A DNA stretch of 64,000 bases from Pseudomonadota bacterium (GTDB taxonomy: Bacteria > Bdellovibrionota > Bacteriovoracia > Bacteriovoracales > Bacteriovoracaceae): NCBI GenBank assembly GCA_027488375.1, contig JAIYBW010000003.1:248001-312000 (forward strand), given 5' to 3'. Positions within the stretch are counted from its first letter, which is position 1. Each line of letters begins with the position of its first letter. The notes below the pieces were generated by a model, which was not told the origin of the DNA, ran no database searches, and saw nothing but the letters and a program-made list of their open reading frames with translations. Below, one piece after another: positions 49,038-63,039 of the stretch. A program made the position numbers and the translations under genes.

Positions 49038-49133
49038 GATCTTCTTTACCTAAAGAAATCTATCTTTTTGATATCCTTCGTGGATTTCCTTTGTTGAGCA
49101 GAGTAGTATGCTTGGGCAACAAAGGAATTGATT

Positions 49134-50444
49134 ATGAAGAAATCCCTCGTTTCGATTGCTGTTCTTTTTTCTTTAAGCTCTTACGCTTCTGTTAAAATTG
49201 AAGAAGAGTTCTATGTGATGGGTCAAAACCCAGAAGTTATTAAAGATCTTGCCCAAGCTGGATCTGTTGAAATTGACCACGTAACCTCTGAAGGTTTTGA
49301 AGTGTACGGCCCCAAAGGTCTTTCTAAAGTTCTTTCAGAAAGATCTCTTCCTTTTTTCGATATGAAATCAATTCTTAAATCAGCTCTCGCGGATTATCCG
49401 AGTCATGAAGAGATTACAAGAAAGTTAAAAGCAGCTGAGGCTAAAAACCCAAAAATCATGAAACTCTTTTCAATTGGAAAGTCAGTTACTGGAAAAGATT
49501 TATGGGTTATGAAAATTTCAGATAACGTTAATACGGATGAAGTTGAGCCAGAGTTCAAATATATTTCCTCCATGCATGGTGATGAAATTACAGGAAGAGA
49601 ACTTACAGTTAAATTTATTGAAGAGATTGCTCAGACTTATGGCACGAACCAAGAACTAACTGATCTTGTCGATAATACTGAAATTTATATTATGCCTTCT
49701 ATGAATCCAGATGGTTCAGAGAGAAAGCAACGTGCCAATGCGAATGGGTATGATCTAAATAGAAATTTTCCAGACATTAGTAATAGAAATGGAAATACTA
49801 TTACAGGTCGTCAAATTGAAAACCAACATGTGATGAAGTTTCAAGCTTCAAGACAATTTTCTCTTTCTGCGAATTTTCATGGTGGGACAATCGTCGTGAA
49901 TTATCCTTGGGATTCTACTTATGACCGTCACCCGTTGGACGGTTTTATTAAAGAATTATCTCTAGGCTATGCTGAACTTAATCCAGAGATGCGTTCATCT
50001 AGAGAGTTTGCTGGTGGAATCACAAATGGCGCTGATTGGTATGTTGTAAAAGGTGGTATGCAAGATTGGAGCTCATTTTTTTATAATGATCTTCAAGTTA
50101 CAGTTGAGCTCTCTCATGCAAAATGGCCACGCTACGATGATATTCCTGGATTTTATCAGAGCAATCGTGAATCTATGATTTATTTCATGAAGCAAATTCA
50201 CCGCGGAGCTGGATTTAAATTTAATCGCCCAGGAGTTGCTGGAACTGTGCATGTGAAACAAACTTCACCTGTTGCTAAAGACTTAGGTTCATTTGCTTTT
50301 AACTCATCTGAGTTTTTTAAAGTCATGCCAGAGGGGCAATATTCGTTTAGTATTACAGAAAATAATAAGTCTGTTCGAAATTTAGAAGTCACAGTTGATA
50401 AAGATAGAATCTTCAAAGATGGAAACTATCTTGTGATCGATTAA
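49134..50444 (+). CDS. Exported M14 zinc carboxypeptidase
   Basis: 436 residues from the ATG at 49134 (AAAGGA SD). Signal peptide (IAVLFSLSSYAS). Zinc ligands and catalytic Glu are present: HGDE (His148, Glu151), NFHGG (His249) and VELSHA (Glu325); MNPDGSERKQRANANGYDLNRNFPD is the substrate-binding Asn-Arg region. The C-terminal ~80 residues (PGVAGTVHVKQ onward) are a transthyretin-like domain, so it belongs to the carboxypeptidase N/E-type (M14B). An N-terminal ~90-residue prodomain is likely. It probably trims peptides outside the cytoplasm. Confidence 0.93.
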   Translation: MKKSLVSIAVLFSLSSYASVKIEEEFYVMGQNPEVIKDLAQAGSVEIDHVTSEGFEVYGPKGLSKVLSERSLPFFDMKSILKSALADYPSHEEITRKLKAAEAKNPKIMKLFSIGKSVTGKDLWVMKISDNVNTDEVEPEFKYISSMHGDEITGRELTVKFIEEIAQTYGTNQELTDLVDNTEIYIMPSMNPDGSERKQRANANGYDLNRNFPDISNRNGNTITGRQIENQHVMKFQASRQFSLSANFHGGTIVVNYPWDSTYDRHPLDGFIKELSLGYAELNPEMRSSREFAGGITNGADWYVVKGGMQDWSSFFYNDLQVTVELSHAKWPRYDDIPGFYQSNRESMIYFMKQIHRGAGFKFNRPGVAGTVHVKQTSPVAKDLGSFAFNSSEFFKVMPEGQYSFSITENNKSVRNLEVTVDKDRIFKDGNYLVID

Positions 50445-51715: not shown

Positions 51716-52393
51716 ATGAAATTAGCATATTTTTCTTTATTTATTTTTATACTCGCATGTGGGCGAGTCGAGCTGAAGGTCGGAGATAAATTGGGTGATT
51801 TTAAGAATGTCAGCCCACTTACTTTGGGTGGACAGGAACTTGAATTACTTAAATCAATTTGTAGTTCAATTTCTCAAAAAACGAGTGCATTACCGGTATT
51901 GGTGAATTCATCATTCACTTTTAGTTATTCTTCGCGAAGTTGTGAAGACGAAAGTTACAGTGCTCCTGTTGATTTTTTGACGACAATTCAAAATTCTTTT
52001 AATGGTTATCGTTTTCTAAAAAGTGATGGAACTTCATTTTATTTTTCTGATCTTGAAACGACCGATTCAGGTACCATGTCTTTATTTTGCAAACAGTTGA
52101 ATGAAGCTCAAAGTTTGCAAAGCCCAATCCAGGCGGGCCAGGAATATTCTTTTATATCCACCACTGGTATTTCATCAGAGGATTGCGCTATCTCTGAAAA
52201 TGAAGTCTGTGTAGAGATCTCAAAGGGGACGCAGGATTTAAGTGGATTGGCAAAAATTCACACAAAAGAGTGGATCAAATTTTCATTAAATCCTTTGAAT
52301 GGTCGAAAAGGTTTTTTTACATCCAAAAAATTAATAACATCAATGGGGTGTCCTGAAGGAAAACTTCTCGGTCATAAGGCCAATCTTAAATAG
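51716..52393 (+). CDS. Predicted lipoprotein, unknown function
   Basis: 225 residues with lipobox ILAC (mature from Cys15). Beta-rich mature part with several Cys (SICSSIS, SRSCEDES, LFCKQL, EDCAISENEVC, MGCPEGK), probably disulfide-bonded. No family recognised. Forms an operon with the lipoprotein at 50980 and overlaps the convergent gene by 8 bp. Confidence 0.72.
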   Translation: MKLAYFSLFIFILACGRVELKVGDKLGDFKNVSPLTLGGQELELLKSICSSISQKTSALPVLVNSSFTFSYSSRSCEDESYSAPVDFLTTIQNSFNGYRFLKSDGTSFYFSDLETTDSGTMSLFCKQLNEAQSLQSPIQAGQEYSFISTTGISSEDCAISENEVCVEISKGTQDLSGLAKIHTKEWIKFSLNPLNGRKGFFTSKKLITSMGCPEGKLLGHKANLK

Positions 52394-53186
52394 AGCACCC
52401 CAGTGCCATCTGAACAGTGACTAATTTCCTTGTGTCAGCATCAAACACTTTTTTACAGAAGATGTGTCCAAAAGCTTGATGGGGCTTAACTTTACTTTCA
52501 GGGCAATTAATATTCTCTTTTTTATCCTCAAATTGCCCAATATTGGACAGGTCAAAAGAAATAATTTTCCAATCTCCTTGAGAGGAGACTTTAAGCATAA
52601 AGTAGACTCCATCCTCTTCCTTTAAAATATAAAGTTCCTTATTTTTTATGAAGAGGGGTTGATCATTTATGGGCAGGTGATAAGTCTGAGGTCCAGTTTC
52701 ATAAAATACCGTTACAGGCTGGGGGAGTAAGTTTTCATTTAGAGGAAGTTCGATTTGGGATTGATCTCTCCATATAAAAGCCTTGGCCGGCCCGATTGAT
52801 TTTATAAAAGAAGTTCCTCTAAGTATTTTTTCACCTTGTTTGGGATTGTGTTCTTTACACTCAGAAGTATGCGTCGCTGGCATAAATGCTTTTTTGGCTT
52901 TTTCAAATGTATAAAACTCTACCGGGATTCCGAATTGGGCGCGAAAAGTCTCAAATTCATGAGATATTTTATTGTGATCAGATGAATTTTTGTGCTTTTG
53001 AACGAGATCTTTCCACTTGGAAAATAAATGCCCCATCGCTTGGTCACAGTCTGAATTTTCCGGACATCCTTTGATTTCATGGGTGAAATCTTCAAGAGAT
53101 TCTGGGTTGGGGAGGACTTGAATCCTAGGGTTATTCTGAGCAAAAGCTGAGAACATTAAAAATAATAGAAAATAAGTGATGGTCAT
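52386..53186 (-). CDS. Exported protein of unknown function
   Basis: 266 residues from the ATG at 53186; a TTG seven codons upstream is less likely. Signal peptide YFLLFLMFSAFA-QN. Two parts: a helical Cys-containing half (KGCPENSDCDQAMGHLF) and a beta-rich C-terminal half with paired Cys (INCPESK, IFCKK, LGCSI). No recognised motif. A C-x5-C pair followed by MGHLFSKW may be a small disulfide-stabilised domain. Confidence 0.72.
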   Translation of the reverse strand: MTITYFLLFLMFSAFAQNNPRIQVLPNPESLEDFTHEIKGCPENSDCDQAMGHLFSKWKDLVQKHKNSSDHNKISHEFETFRAQFGIPVEFYTFEKAKKAFMPATHTSECKEHNPKQGEKILRGTSFIKSIGPAKAFIWRDQSQIELPLNENLLPQPVTVFYETGPQTYHLPINDQPLFIKNKELYILKEEDGVYFMLKVSSQGDWKIISFDLSNIGQFEDKKENINCPESKVKPHQAFGHIFCKKVFDADTRKLVTVQMALGCSI

Positions 53187-53258
53187 GGCCTTCCCTAGCG
53201 TTTGCAAAAAGATTCTTTTATTATAGACTGAGTCGAATTGATATTTTGAGGAGGATTT

Positions 53259-53381
53259 ATGAAAAAACTAAAAAAGTCTCGCCCAGCGAAGAAGGCTTCA
53301 AAAAACAAAAAAAGTGGAGTGAAGCTTAAGCGATTAGCGCGCAAAAAAAAGCTTCTTAAAGGTCACAAAAAAGGTAAGTAA
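53259..53381 (+). CDS. 40-residue Lys-rich small protein
   Basis: Frame ATG...TAA coding MKKLKKSRPAKKASKN and ending KGHKKGK; 21 of 40 residues are Lys or Arg. A near-perfect SD (GAGGAGG) lies before the ATG and an intrinsic terminator directly after the stop, marking a real short transcription unit. Resembles in style, but is not identical to, the 38-residue protein at 13098-13214. Likely nucleic-acid or ribosome bound. Confidence 0.72.
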   Translation: MKKLKKSRPAKKASKNKKSGVKLKRLARKKKLLKGHKKGK

Positions 53382-53391
53382 GCCATAGAAG

Positions 53392-53415
53392 GGCCCTCGA
53401 AAGAGGGCCTTTTTG
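53392..53415 (+). terminator. Intrinsic terminator after the 40-residue protein
   Basis: GGCCCTC (53392-53398) / GAAA tetraloop / GAGGGCC (53403-53409), then TTTTTG. Almost the same stem as the rpsD terminator. Confidence 0.9.
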
Positions 53416-53590
53416 TTTGTGCGCATTGTAAAGTTATTGAAAAGTCTTAGCAGCGTCAAAGTCATGACAATAAATAATACTAGATCTTGTGTTTTTGTTT
53501 TGACGGGTTGGTTAATTGACTGGTTAAATGATTTTATTAACTCTTAAAAAAGATTTTGAAAGAGATTTAATTCCTGCACACACACATAAA

Positions 53591-53615
53591 AGCCTCCGAA
53601 TGGAGGCTTTTTTTA
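53591..53615. terminator. Intrinsic terminator overlapping the end of a small minus-strand gene
   Basis: AGCCTCC (53591-53597) / GAAT / GGAGGCT (53602-53608), with TTTTTTT on the plus side and AAAA on the left, so it can work in both directions; the minus-strand gene stops at its edge. Confidence 0.75.
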
Positions 53616-53846
53616 TTCTTCACTATCTAGTTCTTCCAAGGCTTTTTTTTGTTCTTCTTTGAGTTTATGTCCTTGTTGGACTTTCTCCATAAGCATTTTT
53701 GCCTGTTCAGGTGTCATAGCAGGGATACTGCTGGCCGAAGGTGGTGAGACTTGTTCAGTTTTTGAGAAATTTTCTTCTTCATCATCTTCGGCCCAAGAAA
53801 CTTGCATGAAGATAATCAAAGCTATAAAAATTAATTTTTTCACCAA
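53613..53846 (-). CDS. Small exported acidic protein
   Basis: 77 residues with a signal peptide (FIALIIFMQVSWA-ED). The mature ~57 residues are Glu/Lys/Pro-rich: DDEEENF, a Ser/Pro linker and a helix (TPEQAKMLMEKVQQGHKLKEEQKKALEEL). No Cys, no family recognised. SD GAGGAG precedes the ATG; 12 nt separate it from the thioesterase gene upstream, so they are co-transcribed. Confidence 0.72.
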   Translation of the reverse strand: MVKKLIFIALIIFMQVSWAEDDEEENFSKTEQVSPPSASSIPAMTPEQAKMLMEKVQQGHKLKEEQKKALEELDSEE

Positions 53847-53858
53847 TTCTCCTCGTTT

Positions 53859-54344
53859 CTAATTTTTGTGAGAGAGCGTGTCTCTTACAGTTTTCTTCAT
53901 CGCGACTCTTTTCTTGGCATTTTCAAAGCGTCGTTTTTCATCTTCTGTTTGCGGATCTAGAGTTGGAACGACGACAGGTTTACCTAAATCGTCTAGGGCG
54001 ACAAACGTAAGATAGGCTTTCGTTGTAGTTCTTGATTCACCAGTATAGGGATTCTCAGACGTCACTTTGACTCCAACAATCATAGAAGTCTTCCCCACAT
54101 AATTCAGAGAAGCTTGAATAAGCACGTGATAGCCAACTTTTATGGGAGCAATGAAATCAATATCATCAATATGAGCAGTCACCACAGGACGCCCACAATG
54201 ACGAGCGGCGACCATGGCAGCCGCAATATCAATCCAACTCATCACAGTTCCACCGAATACAGTATTTTGAGGATTTGTGTGATGAGGCATGACCATTTCA
54301 CGCATTTCAACAGTAGATTCATTCGGAGTTTTAGACGATTTCAT
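53859..54344 (-). CDS. Acyl-CoA thioesterase (YciA-type hotdog)
   Basis: 161 residues, a single hotdog domain. The family motif is HTNPQNTVFGGTVMSWIDIAAAMVA with the catalytic Asp after the GG turn, followed by VTAHIDDIDFIAPIKVGY and LNYVGKTSMIVGVKV. Hydrolyses acyl-CoA. An SD (AAAGGA) lies at the end of the 1757-residue gene, 9 nt upstream, so it may be co-transcribed with it. Confidence 0.92.
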   Translation of the reverse strand: MKSSKTPNESTVEMREMVMPHHTNPQNTVFGGTVMSWIDIAAAMVAARHCGRPVVTAHIDDIDFIAPIKVGYHVLIQASLNYVGKTSMIVGVKVTSENPYTGESRTTTKAYLTFVALDDLGKPVVVPTLDPQTEDEKRRFENAKKRVAMKKTVRDTLSHKN

Positions 54345-54353
54345 TTATTTCCT

Positions 54354-57300
54354 TTAATCTTGGCAATAGAGATGGTGATTCCAGCGGAATCCGGCCATGA
54401 AAGCAGAGTAGCCCACTGGAATTGTAGCTCCTGCAGTCGATACTTTTCCTTCATCACGAGAAGAATCCACAATACCATAAATTTTATCTGCAAGATTTGT
54501 TTCATTTCCAACTGGCTCAAGAGGGAACTCACCAAAAGCTCCACCTTGGCGGACTTTTTTAGATTCACAGTAAGCTTTGCCTAAAGCTGCAATTTTTTGG
54601 TTCACAGTGGGAGTGAGTTTAGGTTCACCAGTAATATAATTAAAATCATTTTCTCCAAGTCCTCCACCTGGTTTGTCACTTCCAACTGCTTCATTTGAAA
54701 CGAAGCGATTAAAATAAACCATTAAGTCTGTCCCACCTGGGAGAGTGCAGGTATAGGTCGTGCTGCTGCCAGTTCCTGAAGAGACTCCATAACCTGAGCA
54801 ACATTTTGTCTGGTCCTTATTTGTTTTTCCGAGAGGTGTACAACATTTAAAATCATTTTCAGAGAAAATGGGCTCATGATCTAGGCCATAACGATTTGTG
54901 TAGTTTGCTGTATAACTTGCACCAGAATCAGGATCAACAAGAGTATGTTGAAAGGAAAAGTCAGGATTATCAAAATGATTTTTCTTCAAATCAGGAAATC
55001 CAAGTTTTTTAAACATTCCTGGGATCAAACGAGTAGAATTATCTGAGCAGTAGAGAGGCTCATAACTAATCTGAGGAATTCCAGATAATTCAAGCTTACC
55101 AAGGCGTTTCAAGTAATAAGTATTAGTTCCAGGTTCAGCTTTTGGAATGCCCGAGCCTACTCCTGCAACGGTCGCATTAATAAGCTTAATCCCCATTTTT
55201 TTTGTTGCGCTAGATGCAACACCAAAAGTTCCATCAATAGTAGGAACTACTTTGAGTATTCTATTTGCAGCATCAAAAGCATAACAACATTTGGCCCCAC
55301 TTGCCGTTGCCGTTGTACATTGGGTACCACCATCGGTCGTAGGGTAAGCAAGATAAGTTAAAAGTGACGATATTTTTACGCAAGCATCAACATCCGCATT
55401 TTCCTGGCCTGCGGCTGCATTGTACATGTGGACTCTTGCCGATCCTTGCCATTGACTAGATGGTCCATCAGCAAACGAGGCAATGTTATTATCCCAGGAC
55501 GGAGTAATAAAACTTGGTATTTTGATTGAGATATTTGCGCGACCACCATTGGCACCTATCTTAGCATTATCAATGATAATTGCCTGATCGCTATCGGCAG
55601 ATTTGGGGTAGTAATAATAATCGAGAGAGGAATCAAAATCAATTCCAGATGTCTTGTAATGCCCAACATCTGTTGGACCTGTAAGAGTTGTGTAACTGTC
55701 TGGTGATGGAAAAGTGTCATTTATACTGTCCAAAATTGTGTAGAGAGCACAACTCCCTTTGTTTCCAGCCGCATCTTTACAGTAACTACCAAGATCTTGA
55801 TTCACGAGATTGGTTACATTGCCGGCCGGATATAGGCTTGCAAAATCTTCTGGGTTAGTAAGAAGAGGAGTCCTTGAATTAATACAGGTGAAATTTTTAA
55901 CATCAATATACAGTCGATCTCTTTTCGTCCAATCGTTTGACCCATCAGAAAATTTTCTGATCCAGCCACCACCGCAACAAGATTCAGAGTTGGCTTCGCT
56001 AAGAGTTTTCCACTGGTAGGGAGTCATAACATTAGGCCATGGGGCCGAAGTAAGATTTGAACCCGTTTTATCTTGGAAAGCACTCAGACCTGGACGATTT
56101 GTCGTTCCTAAATTTTCAACAGTTGCTAGTCTTGAATAACGGTAAGGATCACTTGGACTCATCCCAGGAGCGAGTGTCGTTTTGAGACCAAAAGAGAGTC
56201 GATCGTACGTGTCATCATTAAGTGATGCATTGAGGTTTGAAGCACTGTTTGGATTTACAGTCGTTGGAACATAACTTGTGTGAGTTGATAAATCACTTCC
56301 AACTTCTCGACAACACACATTCTTATTCATCTGGAAATTTTTATAGTTCAGAGTATCTTGAAGTGAAGGTTTTGAGTCGGCCTGGCCGCAAACGAGGTAC
56401 TCCGTATAATATTTTTTCTCAGCTTCATTACCAAAATAGTTGGTACTGTAATTATCAGCCTGGGCCGCATGCATTTTATTTGGCCCACAATCAAGATCTG
56501 TGTGGCAAACTTGACCAGCTCTTCTCATACACGCATCTCTTGCAAAACTTGGCTCTACAACCGTTTGACTTGCAAGAGGTTTAGATTCAATCGCCTTAAA
56601 AGGGGAACTGGCAAGAAGGTTATCTGCACTCGTATTTAAGTTCGTCCCATTAAAAAGTGTATCTAAACCGCAGGAATTTTGATTTCTGGCCCTGAGATGA
56701 TAATTGTTTAAATCAAAACCAGAACTTAAAAACTCATAGTTTCCATCAGCTCCAATCACTGGGCATGATGAATATCTGTAGGAAGTGAATAGACCAGAGT
56801 TACAACTACTGATTTGGCTGATGAAGTCTGTTCTACCTAAAGTATCTGGAGCTTTATGCTGCTCAAAAGGATTTAATAGAGTGGTTTGATTACTAGTCGT
56901 TGGTAGGCTTTTCCCTGGTAGACAAATCCCACTTGTCGCATTTGCTGATGACTCATATTGCAAAATATTGTCTTGAATATTTTGACGAACATCACTTGGG
57001 AGAGTTGTTGTCTGGGTGCTGGCAACATAACTTAAAGGACGACCCAATATATTTGCATCTTTACCGAAGAGATGATTTTTTGTGACAGGAATTTCTTCTA
57101 GGGTTGCTCCATATCTTGCTATCTTTGAGTTAAATACGGCGCTACTTGTTGTTAGATTGGCGCAGTAGAAATTTGGTGCGCATGAAAGTGTTTTTCTTTT
57201 ATTTAAGTCAGTAATCGTCCCAGGTGTTTGGACACAAAGTGAGCCGGCCCCACGATATACACATCTTTTAGTTGAAGATGAGGGAAAGCGTTTTTGGAGT

Positions 57301-59627
57301 AGGACTTGATCGATAGTTAAAGCTGTTGATTCGCCGGCTTTTTCTTTGGCATTTACATCAAAGACTGGCCACTGAGTTTTAATGTCCTGAACATTGGCAC
57401 ACATGTATTCCCAGCCAAGTCTTGTCACACAGTCTGTATCAGTTGAGCAAAGATGATTGGCCTGACAATTACCCGCTTCATTTTGGTAAGGGTGAGAATT
57501 ATGATATTGAGGATCATAGTCCACTTGAGCTGCGAGGGTGATTCCATCATAAGCTTGAACATTGACCACGTGAAGAGTGGGTGTCGCTAAATCGGCAAAT
57601 GGTGCATTGATTGCTAGGTATAATTTTTTTGATGTCGACTTTACGATTCGTCCTTTACCAATCGCAAACCAAGTCACCCCGTCAAAAGACCCTATTAAAG
57701 CACCTTTATTAAAACCAAACCAATCTCTTTGATATCCGTTAGAGAACAAAGCAGCTTGAGTTTTTAATCTTTTGAGACGCTGTGATTGAGTTGTGGTCCC
57801 AGCCTTATGTGAGAAAGGAATCATCGTTGGAGGAATCCAACAAGCTCGCCCAAAGATGGTATCTTCATAATTTCCACCAGTGGCATTATTGTCATAACCA
57901 TCTCTTGATGTCGAATGTCCAACGGCTTGCAATCCCGTTCCATAACCGCTTGAAGGAAAGGCACTCAAAGATGTGAACCAAGAGTCTTTAGCGCAAGTTG
58001 GGCAAGGAGTATAGAAACCAGAGGTTGTTGCAATTTGATAGACTTGATCTAATTCAACTTCAACCGCTTTGGCCGGAAGGGCCTTATCAAGAGTCACAGT
58101 CATTTGACCAAGGATGGCGTTCATTCCAAAATGTTCTTGGGAGGGAAGAATATTTCCTTCATCTTGATACTCAAAGATATCACCTTCTTGAGCATCTCCA
58201 CCTGCACAGTTAGCTCCAGAACCAAATTCTTCTCCGCATGACCTAAAATAACGGTGAGGTGCGCTTCTTGAATTCACAGAGATTGTTTGCTGTGTCGGAA
58301 TTGGTGGCGATGTTGAATCAGGAGTATAGCAATCAATTCGGTTTGGTAGACCAGAGTTTTCAAAATAATTGACTGAATACTCATAAGCCGGGCAATAGGC
58401 AATCATGTCGGCCAGAGTTGATTTTGTACATCCACAATTTTTATAAAGTCGTTCTGTGACTTTTAAAAAGTTCATCTCTGAATTCTGAGAAAGGCTATTC
58501 TGATTATTTCGACACTCAATATCCAGAGGATAAAGTGTAGAAGACTGACCTGGGATATCAGTGATGTCTAAGTCATCTGAAAAGAAATCGATACCGGAAG
58601 TTAGAGCAGTCATTACATCTTGATGAAATGTAAGTCCCGTTTTATTTTTCTTCATATGCTCAACACAGTAGTAATCTTTCTTGAGTTGAGTTAAGCCCTG
58701 ATCATAACTTCCGCTACTGCCACCAGTCGTTGAACTACCCGGGTTTGCACCGCAGATATAGTAAAGATGTGGATAATTGAGGTAGGCAAGAGGATTAGAT
58801 ATTCTCTCTTGCTCTGCTGACAAGATCTCGCTGCTGTATTGGGATTGAGCAGATGGTCTAATTGACCCATCTTTAATACATTGATTTTCGAGACAACAAT
58901 CAAATCCACGAGCAGCACATTGAGACTGCGTACAGTTTCCGGCCGGAAGGGAAGTATTATTATTAGGATCAATTAATAGTGATAGAGTTGAAATATTTAC
59001 TTCTGACAATTTGAGTTGTTGAAGCTCATTTCCTGATATTGAAGATTGCTTTTTAAAGACCATTAATTTTGTAGAACTAAGATTACTTGTGCAATTAGGA
59101 CACAAAAAATTCGGATTAAATTTGGGACTTGAAACAGTCGTATCTAGTGAGAGTTCACCATTAGCATCTAGCACTTTTAGTGGGATAACAGGTGAGGAGA
59201 CGCAGACAGATTGTGAGTTCGCAAGATCGTTAAAATCCACTCTGAAAATACGGATGGTTCTTTTAGCTGAAAAATCATAATAAGAAATGGGCACGATTCT
59301 TGAACGAAGTTCTTGAGGAACACCCGATATTGAAAAGCGACTGACGAGACAATAATCCTGAGAAAAATTTGAGCTCGTACTGAGAAAAGTCTCAATTGCT
59401 TTTCCTGTGACATAGGAGTTATTTAGATTAGAAGCATTGATTGAAATAGTTTTTGCAGTCGTGCCCAGATAGTTCCATAAAGTTTCTGTTTCAGGAATTC
59501 CAGATGAGCTTGTCTGTGAATTAGGATCTGTCGAAGATGAATCAGATGATAATTGGCCCTTACCTACCTGAGCTTCAGGCAAACAAGCGACGAGCAAGAA
59601 TAGGAGCAGTAAGTACTTAACATCCAT
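54354..59627 (-). CDS. Giant Cys-rich surface lipoprotein with possible lectin-like segment
   Basis: 1757 residues. Signal peptide with lipobox LLVAC (mature Cys15), then a Ser/Thr/Asp-rich linker. About 57 Cys by eye, including six vicinal CC pairs (e.g. FDCCLENQC, NVCCREV, ESCCGGGW, FKCCTPLG, TKCCSGYG) and C-x5-C pairs (CSTDTDC, CHTDLDC). This suggests repeated disulfide modules. Around residues 630-690 the run GFNKGALIGSFDG ... KKLYLAIN resembles PA-IL/LecA-type galactose-binding domains (GALIG, then L-x-L-x-I-N); pattern match only. No protease or glycosidase motif. Its size, anchoring and Cys content suggest a cell-surface adhesin or shell protein. Confidence 0.82.
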   Translation of the reverse strand: MDVKYLLLLFLLVACLPEAQVGKGQLSSDSSSTDPNSQTSSSGIPETETLWNYLGTTAKTISINASNLNNSYVTGKAIETFLSTSSNFSQDYCLVSRFSISGVPQELRSRIVPISYYDFSAKRTIRIFRVDFNDLANSQSVCVSSPVIPLKVLDANGELSLDTTVSSPKFNPNFLCPNCTSNLSSTKLMVFKKQSSISGNELQQLKLSEVNISTLSLLIDPNNNTSLPAGNCTQSQCAARGFDCCLENQCIKDGSIRPSAQSQYSSEILSAEQERISNPLAYLNYPHLYYICGANPGSSTTGGSSGSYDQGLTQLKKDYYCVEHMKKNKTGLTFHQDVMTALTSGIDFFSDDLDITDIPGQSSTLYPLDIECRNNQNSLSQNSEMNFLKVTERLYKNCGCTKSTLADMIAYCPAYEYSVNYFENSGLPNRIDCYTPDSTSPPIPTQQTISVNSRSAPHRYFRSCGEEFGSGANCAGGDAQEGDIFEYQDEGNILPSQEHFGMNAILGQMTVTLDKALPAKAVEVELDQVYQIATTSGFYTPCPTCAKDSWFTSLSAFPSSGYGTGLQAVGHSTSRDGYDNNATGGNYEDTIFGRACWIPPTMIPFSHKAGTTTQSQRLKRLKTQAALFSNGYQRDWFGFNKGALIGSFDGVTWFAIGKGRIVKSTSKKLYLAINAPFADLATPTLHVVNVQAYDGITLAAQVDYDPQYHNSHPYQNEAGNCQANHLCSTDTDCVTRLGWEYMCANVQDIKTQWPVFDVNAKEKAGESTALTIDQVLLQKRFPSSSTKRCVYRGAGSLCVQTPGTITDLNKRKTLSCAPNFYCANLTTSSAVFNSKIARYGATLEEIPVTKNHLFGKDANILGRPLSYVASTQTTTLPSDVRQNIQDNILQYESSANATSGICLPGKSLPTTSNQTTLLNPFEQHKAPDTLGRTDFISQISSCNSGLFTSYRYSSCPVIGADGNYEFLSSGFDLNNYHLRARNQNSCGLDTLFNGTNLNTSADNLLASSPFKAIESKPLASQTVVEPSFARDACMRRAGQVCHTDLDCGPNKMHAAQADNYSTNYFGNEAEKKYYTEYLVCGQADSKPSLQDTLNYKNFQMNKNVCCREVGSDLSTHTSYVPTTVNPNSASNLNASLNDDTYDRLSFGLKTTLAPGMSPSDPYRYSRLATVENLGTTNRPGLSAFQDKTGSNLTSAPWPNVMTPYQWKTLSEANSESCCGGGWIRKFSDGSNDWTKRDRLYIDVKNFTCINSRTPLLTNPEDFASLYPAGNVTNLVNQDLGSYCKDAAGNKGSCALYTILDSINDTFPSPDSYTTLTGPTDVGHYKTSGIDFDSSLDYYYYPKSADSDQAIIIDNAKIGANGGRANISIKIPSFITPSWDNNIASFADGPSSQWQGSARVHMYNAAAGQENADVDACVKISSLLTYLAYPTTDGGTQCTTATASGAKCCYAFDAANRILKVVPTIDGTFGVASSATKKMGIKLINATVAGVGSGIPKAEPGTNTYYLKRLGKLELSGIPQISYEPLYCSDNSTRLIPGMFKKLGFPDLKKNHFDNPDFSFQHTLVDPDSGASYTANYTNRYGLDHEPIFSENDFKCCTPLGKTNKDQTKCCSGYGVSSGTGSSTTYTCTLPGGTDLMVYFNRFVSNEAVGSDKPGGGLGENDFNYITGEPKLTPTVNQKIAALGKAYCESKKVRQGGAFGEFPLEPVGNETNLADKIYGIVDSSRDEGKVSTAGATIPVGYSAFMAGFRWNHHLYCQD

Positions 59628-59803
59628 GTGTACAAAATCCCTCTTTCATTTTTCGGATTTTCATGAGGTTATCTTAATTCTAGCTTACCCCGAGGAAATT
59701 TTTTCCGTAGATTTTCAGAAACATCTTAAAGTATTGAAATAATGAGAATCTTGAGATCCCAAGGACTCATGATCCAAAAGAAACTGACAAAAATATCCGC
59801 CAA

Positions 59804-61768
59804 TTATTGTCCAGTAGGGTAATTGAAATAGCTAGAAGTGCTGAAGGTATAGGGTCTTGCTCCGCCGCCAGGTCCAGATGGTGAGTAAGCCGTGAGACCA
59901 GGGTGACTTCTATAGGCACCATAACCCGTCATTAAAGCTGGCTCCATTAATTGCGTAACAATATGTTTCGCAGGAGGTAGTGGAGCGACCATTGGGTAAT
60001 GTGATGTATATGGCCTAATAGGCTGCGGTGGAGGAGTAAATGCTGTCGCTACTGAGCCTAGAAGAGTTTTAGTGAAATTACTGATATCTTCTCCCGCACG
60101 GTTCCGAGTAACCGGATCAACAGAAGCTTGGAAAAAATCTTGATTTACGCTTTTTTCTTTTTCTATTTCCTCATCATCGAGTGCACAAATCTCATCTTTA
60201 AAAGGAATTGTTTCTTTGGTTTCTTCACATATTTTCTCTATATCTGTTTGAGATTTAGGATTTTGCAGAACAAAGATAATGTTATTTGTTTCACTACTAA
60301 GAGCGACAGCTTCTTTGGAAATATTTCCAATATCGGCTGAGCAATTAGAAATGGATGAGTCCGTGGCATTTCCACACTTATTACTATAGATTTTTTCCAA
60401 AAGAAAGTTTCTTAGGCTTATGCGATCAGTTGATTCTTGAAGAATTTTAGTTTTAAGAGCATTCAAGTAGTTGGATTTTTCTAAAAGGTCTGCCATCTTT
60501 AGCGAAAGCATATCATGACATTCTTCAGGATATTTTAGATCAGAATCGGGCACACATTTAGCAGAAAAGCCTTCTAGCTTTTTTATATGGTCATGCCCAA
60601 TAGCGAGTTCATTATTAAGATGATTTATTATTTCTTTTTCAAGCGGTTTAACCTGATCACTTTTGGCAATACTTTCAAGGCATTCATCTATTGGCCCCTC
60701 AAGAGATCTTGCCTTGAGACAAACTTCTGAAGATGTTTCTGGTAGTTTAGGGAATTGACTAAAAATAAGAGACATCTTGCTCTTCATTTCCCATATTTGT
60801 CTGTTTTTTAAATCAGTCAGGAAAGTTTGAAAGCGCTGGGGAATATTTTGAATAGTAACTAATGATTTTGATGTTTCAATTTTTTCAATAGATGATTTAA
60901 TTTCTTTTAAAAAAGAATAATCAGCTGGTGATTTCAACTTAGGAAGTGCTTGGATTTTGTTGAGATCTTCCTCAGTTAATATCTTACCGTCATCTGGTTG
61001 TTTGAGTTCACTTAGGAGTTGAGTATAGGTGTATTTTTTCTCGTCTTTTTCAATATCCAAAGCCTTAGAAAGGTCTTTAATTTGAGATTTGCTAAATTTC
61101 CTTTCAGTCTGTTTCCCGATGGCGGTAAAATCATTAATCTCTTTATAAACTTCATGAGTTAATTTGAAGCCTGGACTACAAACATGATCGCCCGTGAGTT
61201 TATTTTCTTTATTGAAATCTTGGCAATGCTTTTTCAAAAGTTCAACAAACGAATCAAAATCTTTCCAGCCAGTTTTATCTGAAGCAAGTTTAGAGAGAAT
61301 ATTTTCAGATTTGTTATTGTTGGTGGCCAGAAAGAGTTCTAAGTTTTTTGCGACTTTTAGATTTTTGAAGAGATCAGTGGTCGCTTCCGTAGCAATGTTC
61401 TTATTTGGAAACTTTTTTAATGTTTCAAGTCCTTCGTTTATTTCATTCTTTAGGTTGGTAATCCCATTGAAGAGAGCAATTTCATTTTCAATTGTTTTTA
61501 ACTGCATCTCAATTGCGGAGTAATCTTTACAGCGATAATCAAAGCCAATCTCTTTATCTTTATTTATTTCTGGAAAACCAATTGATTTTTCATCCAAGCT
61601 TAGATCGGCCGGCTTAATCTCAGAACACTTGTCCCCAATTCTTTTTTCTTGAATTTGCTTTTCAAGTGTTTCGGCCATCATTCTCATCCTGCCACAATCG
61701 GGAGCAGCAGCAAGTGATGTGCTTAAAATAAGGGGTATTGTTCTTAAAAGTCTCCGCATACTTTTCAA
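59804..61768 (-). CDS. Large exported helical protein with Pro/Gly/Tyr-rich tail
   Basis: 654 residues with a signal peptide (TIPLILSTSLAA-AP). Mostly Lys/Glu-rich helix to about 560, with Cys pairs including Cys182 and Cys197 (KKHC...VCSPGF). The last ~80 residues are Pro/Gly/Tyr/Ser-rich and probably disordered (PPPQPIRPYTSHYP, GYGAYRSHPG, SPSGPGGGARPY). The Cys182-197 region resembles that around Cys302-318 of the 803-residue protein at 8479-10890. It lies 176 bp upstream of the giant lipoprotein on the same strand and 57 bp after dus. Function unknown. Confidence 0.78.
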   Translation of the reverse strand: MKSMRRLLRTIPLILSTSLAAAPDCGRMRMMAETLEKQIQEKRIGDKCSEIKPADLSLDEKSIGFPEINKDKEIGFDYRCKDYSAIEMQLKTIENEIALFNGITNLKNEINEGLETLKKFPNKNIATEATTDLFKNLKVAKNLELFLATNNNKSENILSKLASDKTGWKDFDSFVELLKKHCQDFNKENKLTGDHVCSPGFKLTHEVYKEINDFTAIGKQTERKFSKSQIKDLSKALDIEKDEKKYTYTQLLSELKQPDDGKILTEEDLNKIQALPKLKSPADYSFLKEIKSSIEKIETSKSLVTIQNIPQRFQTFLTDLKNRQIWEMKSKMSLIFSQFPKLPETSSEVCLKARSLEGPIDECLESIAKSDQVKPLEKEIINHLNNELAIGHDHIKKLEGFSAKCVPDSDLKYPEECHDMLSLKMADLLEKSNYLNALKTKILQESTDRISLRNFLLEKIYSNKCGNATDSSISNCSADIGNISKEAVALSSETNNIIFVLQNPKSQTDIEKICEETKETIPFKDEICALDDEEIEKEKSVNQDFFQASVDPVTRNRAGEDISNFTKTLLGSVATAFTPPPQPIRPYTSHYPMVAPLPPAKHIVTQLMEPALMTGYGAYRSHPGLTAYSPSGPGGGARPYTFSTSSYFNYPTGQ

Positions 61769-61825
61769 GTATCGGTAAACATGACTTAAATATTTAGAAC
61801 TTTATTAAATGACTCAGATCCTAGG

Positions 61826-62920
61826 TTAACCATGGCCGGAACTCATGAAAACTTCATCATAATTGATAAATTTTTGAGAGTCCCCTAAGGACTTAAAGTA
61901 GTCCTCCGTGATTTTCATGGTGTCGCTTAAGACTTGGCAGGTAAAGATTTGGGATCTAAAAGCGGCTGCATGAGGGAAACCAGCAGCAAACCAAACAATG
62001 AGTTTTCTAAGTTGAACCAAAGATGTTCTTTCTTCTGGGAAGGTCTCAGTCACATAGAAATATAGTCTTTGTATGACTTCCCAATAGTCATTTCCAGTAA
62101 AAATAGATCTCTTTTGATTGGCATAGCTTGGGTCCAGAGATTCAATAAAAATAAAAGGATTTCTGAGTGCCCCACGAGCAATCATCAGAGCATCACATTG
62201 AGTATTTTGAAGTCTCTCAGAAACTCCGTAAGGATGATGAAGGTCCCCATTTCCAATGAGTGGGAGCTTTTTTATTTCATTAAGGTTCTCGATAAAATTC
62301 CAATCGGCGAGACCCGTATATTGCTGAGTTCTTGTGCGCCCATGTATAGCAACCCATTCGATACCGCTTTCTTTGGCAATTTTGATAATTTCACCCGCAT
62401 TTAAAGTACTGGCATCCCAACCGGTTCTAATCTTGATTGAGAGAGGGATTTTAATTTGAGATCTTACTTTTTCAAAAAGTGGTGCGAGATTTTTAATCTC
62501 TTTCATGAGTGCAGAACCACCGCCTTTAGAAACAACTTTATTGACTGGGCATCCCATATTGATATCTAGAAATTTTGGTCCATAAGTTTCTGCTACCACT
62601 GCGGCCCGGGCCATCGCTTCAGCATCTTCACCAAAAAGTTGAATACCGACATTCTTCTCTAAGGGGTCAATTTTAAGCATTTCGAGGGTTCGCTGATTTC
62701 CATAATTGATACCGTGGCAAGAGATAAGCTCTGATACGGTTCCACCGGCACCAAGATCTTCCATTAAAAGTCTATAGGGAAGGTTACAGATTCCGGCCAT
62801 GGGGGCCAGTAATAGGCGGGAAGAGAAATCGATTGAACCCAACTGAATGGGCTTTTTGAAAGCTTGGAATTTCTCTAACTTGGCCTGCAGTGCCTGCCCA
62901 AATGCTTGAGGTTCTTTCAT
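61826..62920 (-). CDS. tRNA-dihydrouridine synthase (Dus family)
   Basis: 364 residues, FMN-dependent TIM barrel that reduces uridine in tRNA. LLLAPMAGICNLPYRLL, VGIQLFGED, LDINMGCPVNKV with catalytic Cys124, SIKIRTGW, IHGRTRTQQYTG and IGNGDLHHP are all present. The first ~22 residues are an extra extension compared with DusB. No SD is seen before the ATG; see the promoter entry. The Dus subtype (site in tRNA) is not assigned; closest in feel to DusB. Confidence 0.92.
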   Translation of the reverse strand: MKEPQAFGQALQAKLEKFQAFKKPIQLGSIDFSSRLLLAPMAGICNLPYRLLMEDLGAGGTVSELISCHGINYGNQRTLEMLKIDPLEKNVGIQLFGEDAEAMARAAVVAETYGPKFLDINMGCPVNKVVSKGGGSALMKEIKNLAPLFEKVRSQIKIPLSIKIRTGWDASTLNAGEIIKIAKESGIEWVAIHGRTRTQQYTGLADWNFIENLNEIKKLPLIGNGDLHHPYGVSERLQNTQCDALMIARGALRNPFIFIESLDPSYANQKRSIFTGNDYWEVIQRLYFYVTETFPEERTSLVQLRKLIVWFAAGFPHAAAFRSQIFTCQVLSDTMKITEDYFKSLGDSQKFINYDEVFMSSGHG

Positions 62921-62927
62921 GCTACGT

Positions 62928-62955
62928 ATTTAAACGAACAATATTGATCTTGCAA
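62928..62955 (-). promoter_or_regulatory. Candidate promoter with start at or near the dus ATG
   Basis: On the minus strand, TTGCAA (62955-62950), 16-nt spacer, TTAAAT (62933-62928), then 7 nt to the ATG at 62920. This would give a leaderless or nearly leaderless mRNA, in line with the missing SD. Confidence 0.35.
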
Positions 62956-63039
62956 CCCTCCAAAATTTTTTTCACCATGGGCTTGTCTAAGAGCAAGGGA
63001 CGGCCTATCTTCAGGCGACTATTTCATTGAGGTAATTTT

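What the first reader, a model, noticed from the sequence alone, without database searches (positions are those of the whole stretch)
54354..59627. 1757-residue Cys-rich surface lipoprotein with possible lectin-like segment
Seen: lipobox, about 57 Cys, six vicinal CC pairs, repeated C-x5-C pairs, and a GALIGSFDG ... LYLAIN stretch like PA-IL/LecA lectins. Known: vicinal-Cys modules and LecA-type domains bind ligands at surfaces. Inference: a giant disulfide-rich adhesin or surface shell, possibly for prey recognition, encoded beside an exported helical partner.
Basis: partly seen in the sequence, partly recalled or inferred. Interest (0 to 1): 0.75.

Follow-up and report, generated by a model that had tools for sequence, protein, structure and literature searches.

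The report
Giant disulfide-stapled lipoprotein of bacterial predators
The gene encodes a very large lipid-anchored envelope protein held together by about 28 disulfide bonds; it belongs to an undescribed family with two ancient copies in almost every genome of one class of predatory bacteria and none found outside it, which makes it a good but untested candidate for a prey-contact protein.

Summary
The ORF is real, on the minus strand (59627..54354): 1757 aa, lipobox LLVA|C15, 57 Cys, six CC pairs. No Pfam, NCBIfam or PDB relative was found. It founds a family confined, in these searches, to class Bacteriovoracia: 120 of 129 class genomes have it, and no other genome of the phylum shows a credible match. 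Nearly all carry two anciently diverged paralogs, A (this gene) and B, at separate, largely conserved loci. Mature proteins hold an odd number of Cys (51-65) in 42 of 43 members, and variable Cys come and go in matched pairs. The simplest reading is one lipidated Cys with all others in disulfides. No member has Asp at +2, so outer-membrane sorting is likely. A fast-evolving exported protein sits directly upstream in 11 of 13 loci checked. Best reading: an outer-membrane-anchored, disulfide-stapled scaffold with a conserved binding core, probably surface-facing and plausibly used in prey contact. The last two steps are inference.

The parts
54354..59627 (-). Lipoprotein A gene, 1757 aa, paralog A of the family
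   Evidence: start Met and MDV[KR]YL conserved in the genus
59574..59627 (-). Lipoprotein signal peptide and lipobox (residues 1-18), lipidated Cys at residue 15; +2 residue is Leu here and never Asp in 43 members
58935..59432 (-).
   Evidence: no significant PDB fold match
58878..58934 (-). Cys box C-x4-C-x6-CC-x4-C (residues 232-250), invariant in the family; spacing resembles a cystine-knot motif, fold untested
57558..57854 (-). Most conserved core (residues 592-690), 27 of 99 columns invariant across both paralogs
57552..57707 (-). GALIGSFDGVTWFAIGKG...LYLAINAPFAD stretch (residues 641-692), PA-IL-like at motif level only
57162..57467 (-). Cys module with C-S-T-D-T-D-C (residues 721-822), eight invariant Cys
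56310..56531 (-). Cys module with C-H-T-D-L-D-C and CC (residues 1033-1106), six invariant Cys
55128..55742 (-). Variable insert domain (residues 1296-1500), no invariant columns, missing from paralog B of this genome; flanked by the covarying pair C1248-C1527
54357..54872 (-). C-terminal CC-rich region (residues 1586-1757) ending in RWNHHLYC, shared with paralog B
59804..61768 (-). Upstream exported protein, 654 aa, 13 Cys, Tyr/Gly/Ser-rich C-terminus; likely start ATG 61759; same position in 11 of 13 class-wide loci
61826..62920 (-). DusB-like tRNA dihydrouridine synthase, syntenic neighbour, not part of the system
53859..54344 (-). Hotdog thioesterase (YciA-like), next to the lipoprotein gene in about half the loci, probably not part of the system

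Best explanation
The gene makes a giant outer-membrane-anchored lipoprotein of the Bacteriovoracia envelope. Shown or strongly supported by sequence: it is exported, lipidated on Cys15, and its other 56 Cys pair as about 28 disulfides, giving a rigid multidomain rod or shell that tolerates a variable insert domain (1296-1500). Its most conserved part is a core block at 592-690 shared by both paralogs. Inferred: the protein faces outwards, the core binds a ligand common to both paralogs, and with the exported protein encoded upstream it forms a contact layer or scaffold used when the predator attaches to or enters prey.
For: Lipobox with no Asp at +2 in 43 members. Odd Cys count in 42 of 43 members, range 51-65. 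Variable Cys gained and lost in matched pairs: 464-474, 942-986, 1248-1527, 1628-1688 with identical patterns, 1283-1293 and 1416-1447 at 98%. Own genome has four DsbA-like Thioredoxin_4 hits. Present in 120 of 129 class genomes, usually as two paralogs whose split is supported 100/100 and whose clades both span the class. Largely conserved synteny with an exported upstream neighbour. No credible match outside the class in the phylum.
Against: No direct evidence of surface exposure, binding or a role in predation. The core is more conserved than one would expect of a receptor for varied prey. Both AlphaFold2 models are poor (mean pLDDT 34.5 and 36). Some class genomes lack both paralogs and their lifestyle is unknown. 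No DsbC_N isomerase was found in the genome, although 28 disulfides might need one.
Confidence: 0.4

Rival explanations
1. It faces the periplasm: a disulfide-stapled envelope assembly or stability factor that spans or tethers the envelope, needed for growth or cell shape rather than for prey contact.
For: Two copies in most genomes, vertical inheritance, largely fixed synteny beside housekeeping genes, and a very conserved core fit a core envelope function. Bacterial lipoproteins often stay on the inner leaflet unless exported further (general knowledge).
Against: Size and disulfide density are more typical of exposed proteins; the variable insert domain and fast-evolving partner fit an outward position. 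Some genomes lack both paralogs, so it is not essential in the class.
Confidence: 0.3
2. It is a subunit of a pilus or secretion machine of this class, such as a tip or contact protein serving the same role as TraN or PilY1.
For: Large Cys-rich outer-membrane proteins act at contact sites of conjugative and pilus systems (general knowledge). A second PilT copy passing E<=1e-60 is seen in 92 of 120 genomes with the family and in 0 of 9 without it, not corrected for relatedness or completeness.
Against: Neither locus lies beside pilus or secretion genes. No TraN or PilY1 profile hit. Twenty-eight genomes have the family without a second PilT hit.
Confidence: 0.15
3. It contains a true PA-IL (LecA-type) calcium-dependent lectin domain with a ~90-residue insertion.
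For: GALIG-x-[FY]-[DN]-G...F-x-[IV]-G...L-[YF]-[LIF]-A-x-N with the preceding strand V-x-V...Y-x-I resembles PA-IL-type domains (from memory); it is the most conserved block.
Against: No Pfam PA-IL match in 15 or 26 members at E<=10, with or without the insertion. No LecA chain among PDB hits. The calcium-ligand Asp recalled for LecA after the Asn is Ala, Ser or Gly here. Model unresolved.
Confidence: 0.1
4. Residues 592-690 are the active site of an unknown exported enzyme, and the Cys-rich parts are its scaffold.
For: Dense invariant polar residues R594, Q616, R617, R620, Q624, N630, D635, W636, S647, W653, R660, N674, D679 in both paralogs.
Against: No enzyme family matches; invariant residues may be structural.
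Confidence: 0.05

Closest known systems
PA-IL / LecA-type lectin domain (PF07828)
   Same: Short motif GALIG...F.IG...LYL.IN and a preceding V.V...Y.I strand (resemblance recalled, not tested by alignment)
   Different: No Pfam or PDB profile match at E<=10; calcium-ligand Asp recalled for LecA absent; ~90-residue insertion with its own Cys; domain embedded in a 1757-aa lipoprotein
TraN-type mating-pair proteins of conjugative systems
   Same: Large exported Cys-rich outer-membrane protein (general knowledge of TraN)
   Different: Lipoprotein; about three times the size of F TraN; no profile match; no conjugation genes nearby
MIDAS-family adhesin Bd0875 of Bdellovibrio bacteriovorus (PMC11003981)
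   Same: Candidate predator surface adhesin in the same phylum
   Different: Not compared by sequence here; this family was not found outside Bacteriovoracia in the phylum, and no MIDAS/VWA domain was found by Pfam
CxxDxDC-type disulfide-rich modules of secreted proteins
   Same: Two C-[HS]-T-D-x-D-C motifs within Cys clusters
   Different: No Pfam module recognised; resemblance is from memory

Membership tests
Bacterial lipoproteins (LolCDE-sorted) | N-terminal signal with lipobox ending in Cys | tested here: met
   LLVA|C15; lipobox in 43 family members; two further full-length B members have LYSC or GSSC, which the pattern missed
Bacterial lipoproteins (LolCDE-sorted) | No Asp at +2, i.e. 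outer-membrane sorting by the E. coli rule | tested here: met
   +2 is L, M, V, T, I or Q in 43 of 43; the rule is unproven in this class
Disulfide-bonded exported proteins | Even number of Cys apart from the lipidated one | tested here: met
   Odd total in 42 of 43; paired gain and loss
PA-IL / LecA lectins (PF07828) | Sequence match to the family profile | tested here: not met
   No match at E<=10 in A4 and A5 members; none in PDB search
PA-IL / LecA lectins (PF07828) | Calcium-ligand Asp in the Asn-Asp loop (ligand set recalled from LecA) | tested here: not met
   Position after N674 is Ala, Ser or Gly in the alignment; correspondence of positions is by eye
PA-IL / LecA lectins (PF07828) | Small jelly-roll beta-sandwich fold | tested here: inconclusive
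   AlphaFold2 pLDDT about 20 in this region with 7 sequences
Surface adhesin of predators | Surface exposure and prey binding | not testable with these tools
   Needs labelling and mutants
Surface adhesin of predators | Occurs in predators only | tested here: inconclusive
   Confined to Bacteriovoracia, but most genomes are uncultured and their lifestyle is unknown; other phyla were reached only by close-relative scans
TraN / PilY1 contact proteins | Profile match or neighbouring conjugation or pilus genes | tested here: not met

The most novel reading that the evidence does not exclude
Two ancient paralogs of a giant disulfide-stapled lipoprotein, with a dedicated exported partner at locus A, form a prey-contact apparatus specific to Bacteriovoracia, which would mean that this class attaches to prey with surface machinery unrelated to that of Bdellovibrio.
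Probability: 0.25. Interest if true: 0.75.

Novelty: new variant of a known kind. Interest (0 to 1): 0.5.

Why it matters
A protein of 1750 residues kept in two copies across nearly a whole class of bacterial predators, matching no family model, is a strong candidate for a lineage-defining envelope function. If it is a prey-contact protein, it gives Bacteriovoracia, whose prey attachment is far less studied than that of Bdellovibrio, a specific target for deletion tests. Reading partial disulfide connectivity from pair-wise Cys gain and loss may also help with other Cys-rich families that resist structure prediction.

Tried and rejected
AlphaFold2 with the only sequences allowed (7 and 8) gave mean pLDDT 34.5 and 36; only residues 66-231 and roughly 1366-1483 have any shape, and Foldseek against PDB had no match at E<=0.001, so no fold claim is made. 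Whole-protein phmmer against PDB gave nothing. Lectin tests with the 440-715 profile and with a profile with the insertion cut out found only chance hits, such as a nanobody and Cgl2373. DUF6618 came up at E 0.009-0.1 in about half the members, below its cut-off, and was treated as chance. tblastn of the lectin-like stretch in plasmids gave E 0.2-5 hits; the best lies antisense to an annotated gene and was rejected. Phage records: no match. Weak matches outside the class at E 0.005-0.35 lie in short ORFs and cover 30-61 profile positions, mostly outside the conserved GALIGSF core, and were taken as chance. The proteins near locus B were tested as relatives of the upstream partner of A and are not (hhalign probability 1.3%). 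No Rfam family lies in 53000-63000. Literature searches found no description of this family; the lineage-specific survey PMC11656739 focuses on peptidoglycan enzymes and its main text does not mention lipoproteins.

Full report
Observation. The ORF lies on the minus strand, 59627 to 54354, and encodes 1757 residues. It has a lipobox ending at Cys15, 57 Cys and six vicinal pairs. Cys content is 3.2%, more than twice the average of long ORFs in the window, and vicinal pairs exceed composition shuffles. Pfam, NCBIfam and PDB sequence searches give nothing.

Family. The window's genome (3.2 Mb in 11 contigs; nearest named relatives Bacteriovoracaceae) holds a second copy, B, at contig 7 positions 852479-857314, full length but only about 30% identical. 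In the class, 120 of 129 genomes have the family. In the phylum a profile of the conserved core finds it in 120 of 369 genomes, all in one family; four further weak matches proved to be short chance stretches. A tree of the shared core separates A and B with support 100/100, and each clade spans the class, so the duplication predates the class's diversification. Nine genomes lack both copies: four of one genus (88-99% complete), G110 (96%), G112 (90%) and three less complete ones.

Synteny. Locus A is in most cases ffh, HAD hydrolase, dusB, an exported 650-880 aa protein, then lipoprotein A; a hotdog thioesterase follows directly in about half. Locus B is in most cases cinA, lipoprotein B, uppP, an FHA/RDD protein and a ~1020-1115 aa exported Cys-rich protein. 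The exported protein upstream of A is in place in 11 of 13 loci and evolves fast (24-52% within the genus). Profile comparison links the genus set with the distant set (probability 97.3%, E 1.6e-11), though several distant members are barely alike pairwise. It is not related to the neighbour of B. The gap of 176 bases between partner and lipoprotein shows no terminator-like site, so co-transcription is possible but not shown.

Disulfides. Of 43 distinct full-length members, 42 have an odd number of Cys in the mature protein, from 51 to 65. Forty-five Cys are near-invariant. The variable ones come in pairs with identical or nearly identical presence patterns: 464-474, 942-986, 1248-1527, 1628-1688, 1283-1293, 1416-1447. 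The simplest reading is one lipidated Cys and all others in disulfides. Cys parity as a mark of oxidised exported proteins is established practice (for example PMC7678975). The rows are related, so the parity figure is not an independent probability, but counts have changed repeatedly while parity held. The genome has DsbA-like proteins but no DsbC_N domain.

Core. Residues 592-690 are the most conserved part: 27 of 99 columns are invariant across both paralogs, against 0-21% elsewhere. The region 1296-1500 has none and is a variable insert missing from paralog B of this genome. The GALIGSFDG...LYLAIN stretch lies in the core.

Lectin question. The stretch resembles PA-IL-type domains to the eye. 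Three tests gave no support: Pfam scans of 15 and of 26 members at E<=10, the second with the insertion cut out; PDB profile searches, which include LecA structures if held; and a phylum scan with the PA-IL model, which found nothing even in genomes that carry this family. The calcium-ligand Asp that I recall for LecA is Ala, Ser or Gly here. AlphaFold2 failed in this region. The membership claim is not met; that the domain works like a lectin remains possible.

Mechanism. Export, lipidation and disulfide pairing are well supported. Outer-membrane sorting is likely from the absence of Asp at +2 but follows a rule from other bacteria. Surface exposure, ligand binding by the core and a role in prey contact are inference. 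The near-universal presence in a class known from cultured strains as prey-invading predators (PMC11656739), and the apparent absence from the rest of the phylum, fit a lineage-specific contact function but fit a core envelope role equally well.

Verdict. Observation confirmed, interpretation partly supported. The family appears undescribed in the libraries and papers searched. Interest is moderate: solid anatomy, unknown function.

Noticed in passing
G000 contig 7, 852479-857314 (L005:9405-14351 +): Ancient paralog B of the same giant lipoprotein, 1648 aa, 53 Cys, beside cinA, uppP and an FHA/RDD protein.
   Followed up: yes
class genomes G103-G106, G110, G112, G119, G122, G124: These nine lack both paralogs. 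G103-G106 (one genus) also lack flagellin by Pfam, yet all nine keep one PilT; they may differ in lifestyle.
   Followed up: partly
class-wide PilT search: A second PilT copy passing E<=1e-60 is seen in 92 of 120 genomes with the lipoprotein family and in 0 of 9 without it; not corrected for relatedness or completeness.
   Followed up: no
L074:13955-17020, L072:13968-17312 and equivalents near locus B: A 1020-1115 aa exported protein with about 20 Cys and no Pfam match lies near paralog B in most loci; a second undescribed class-wide family.
   Followed up: partly
window 59804-61768 (-): The upstream exported protein ends in a Tyr/Gly/Ser-rich tail; distant counterparts often end in an aromatic pattern such as GFSF or GYSF.
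   Followed up: no
G022 contig 102, 76118-80918: Paralog B appears split into two open frames (783 and 896 aa), either a frameshift or an assembly error.
   Followed up: no
window 49128-50444 (+): Zinc carboxypeptidase (Peptidase_M14).
   Followed up: no
window 51716-52393 (+): Small lipoprotein-like protein with 7 Cys and no Pfam match.
   Followed up: no
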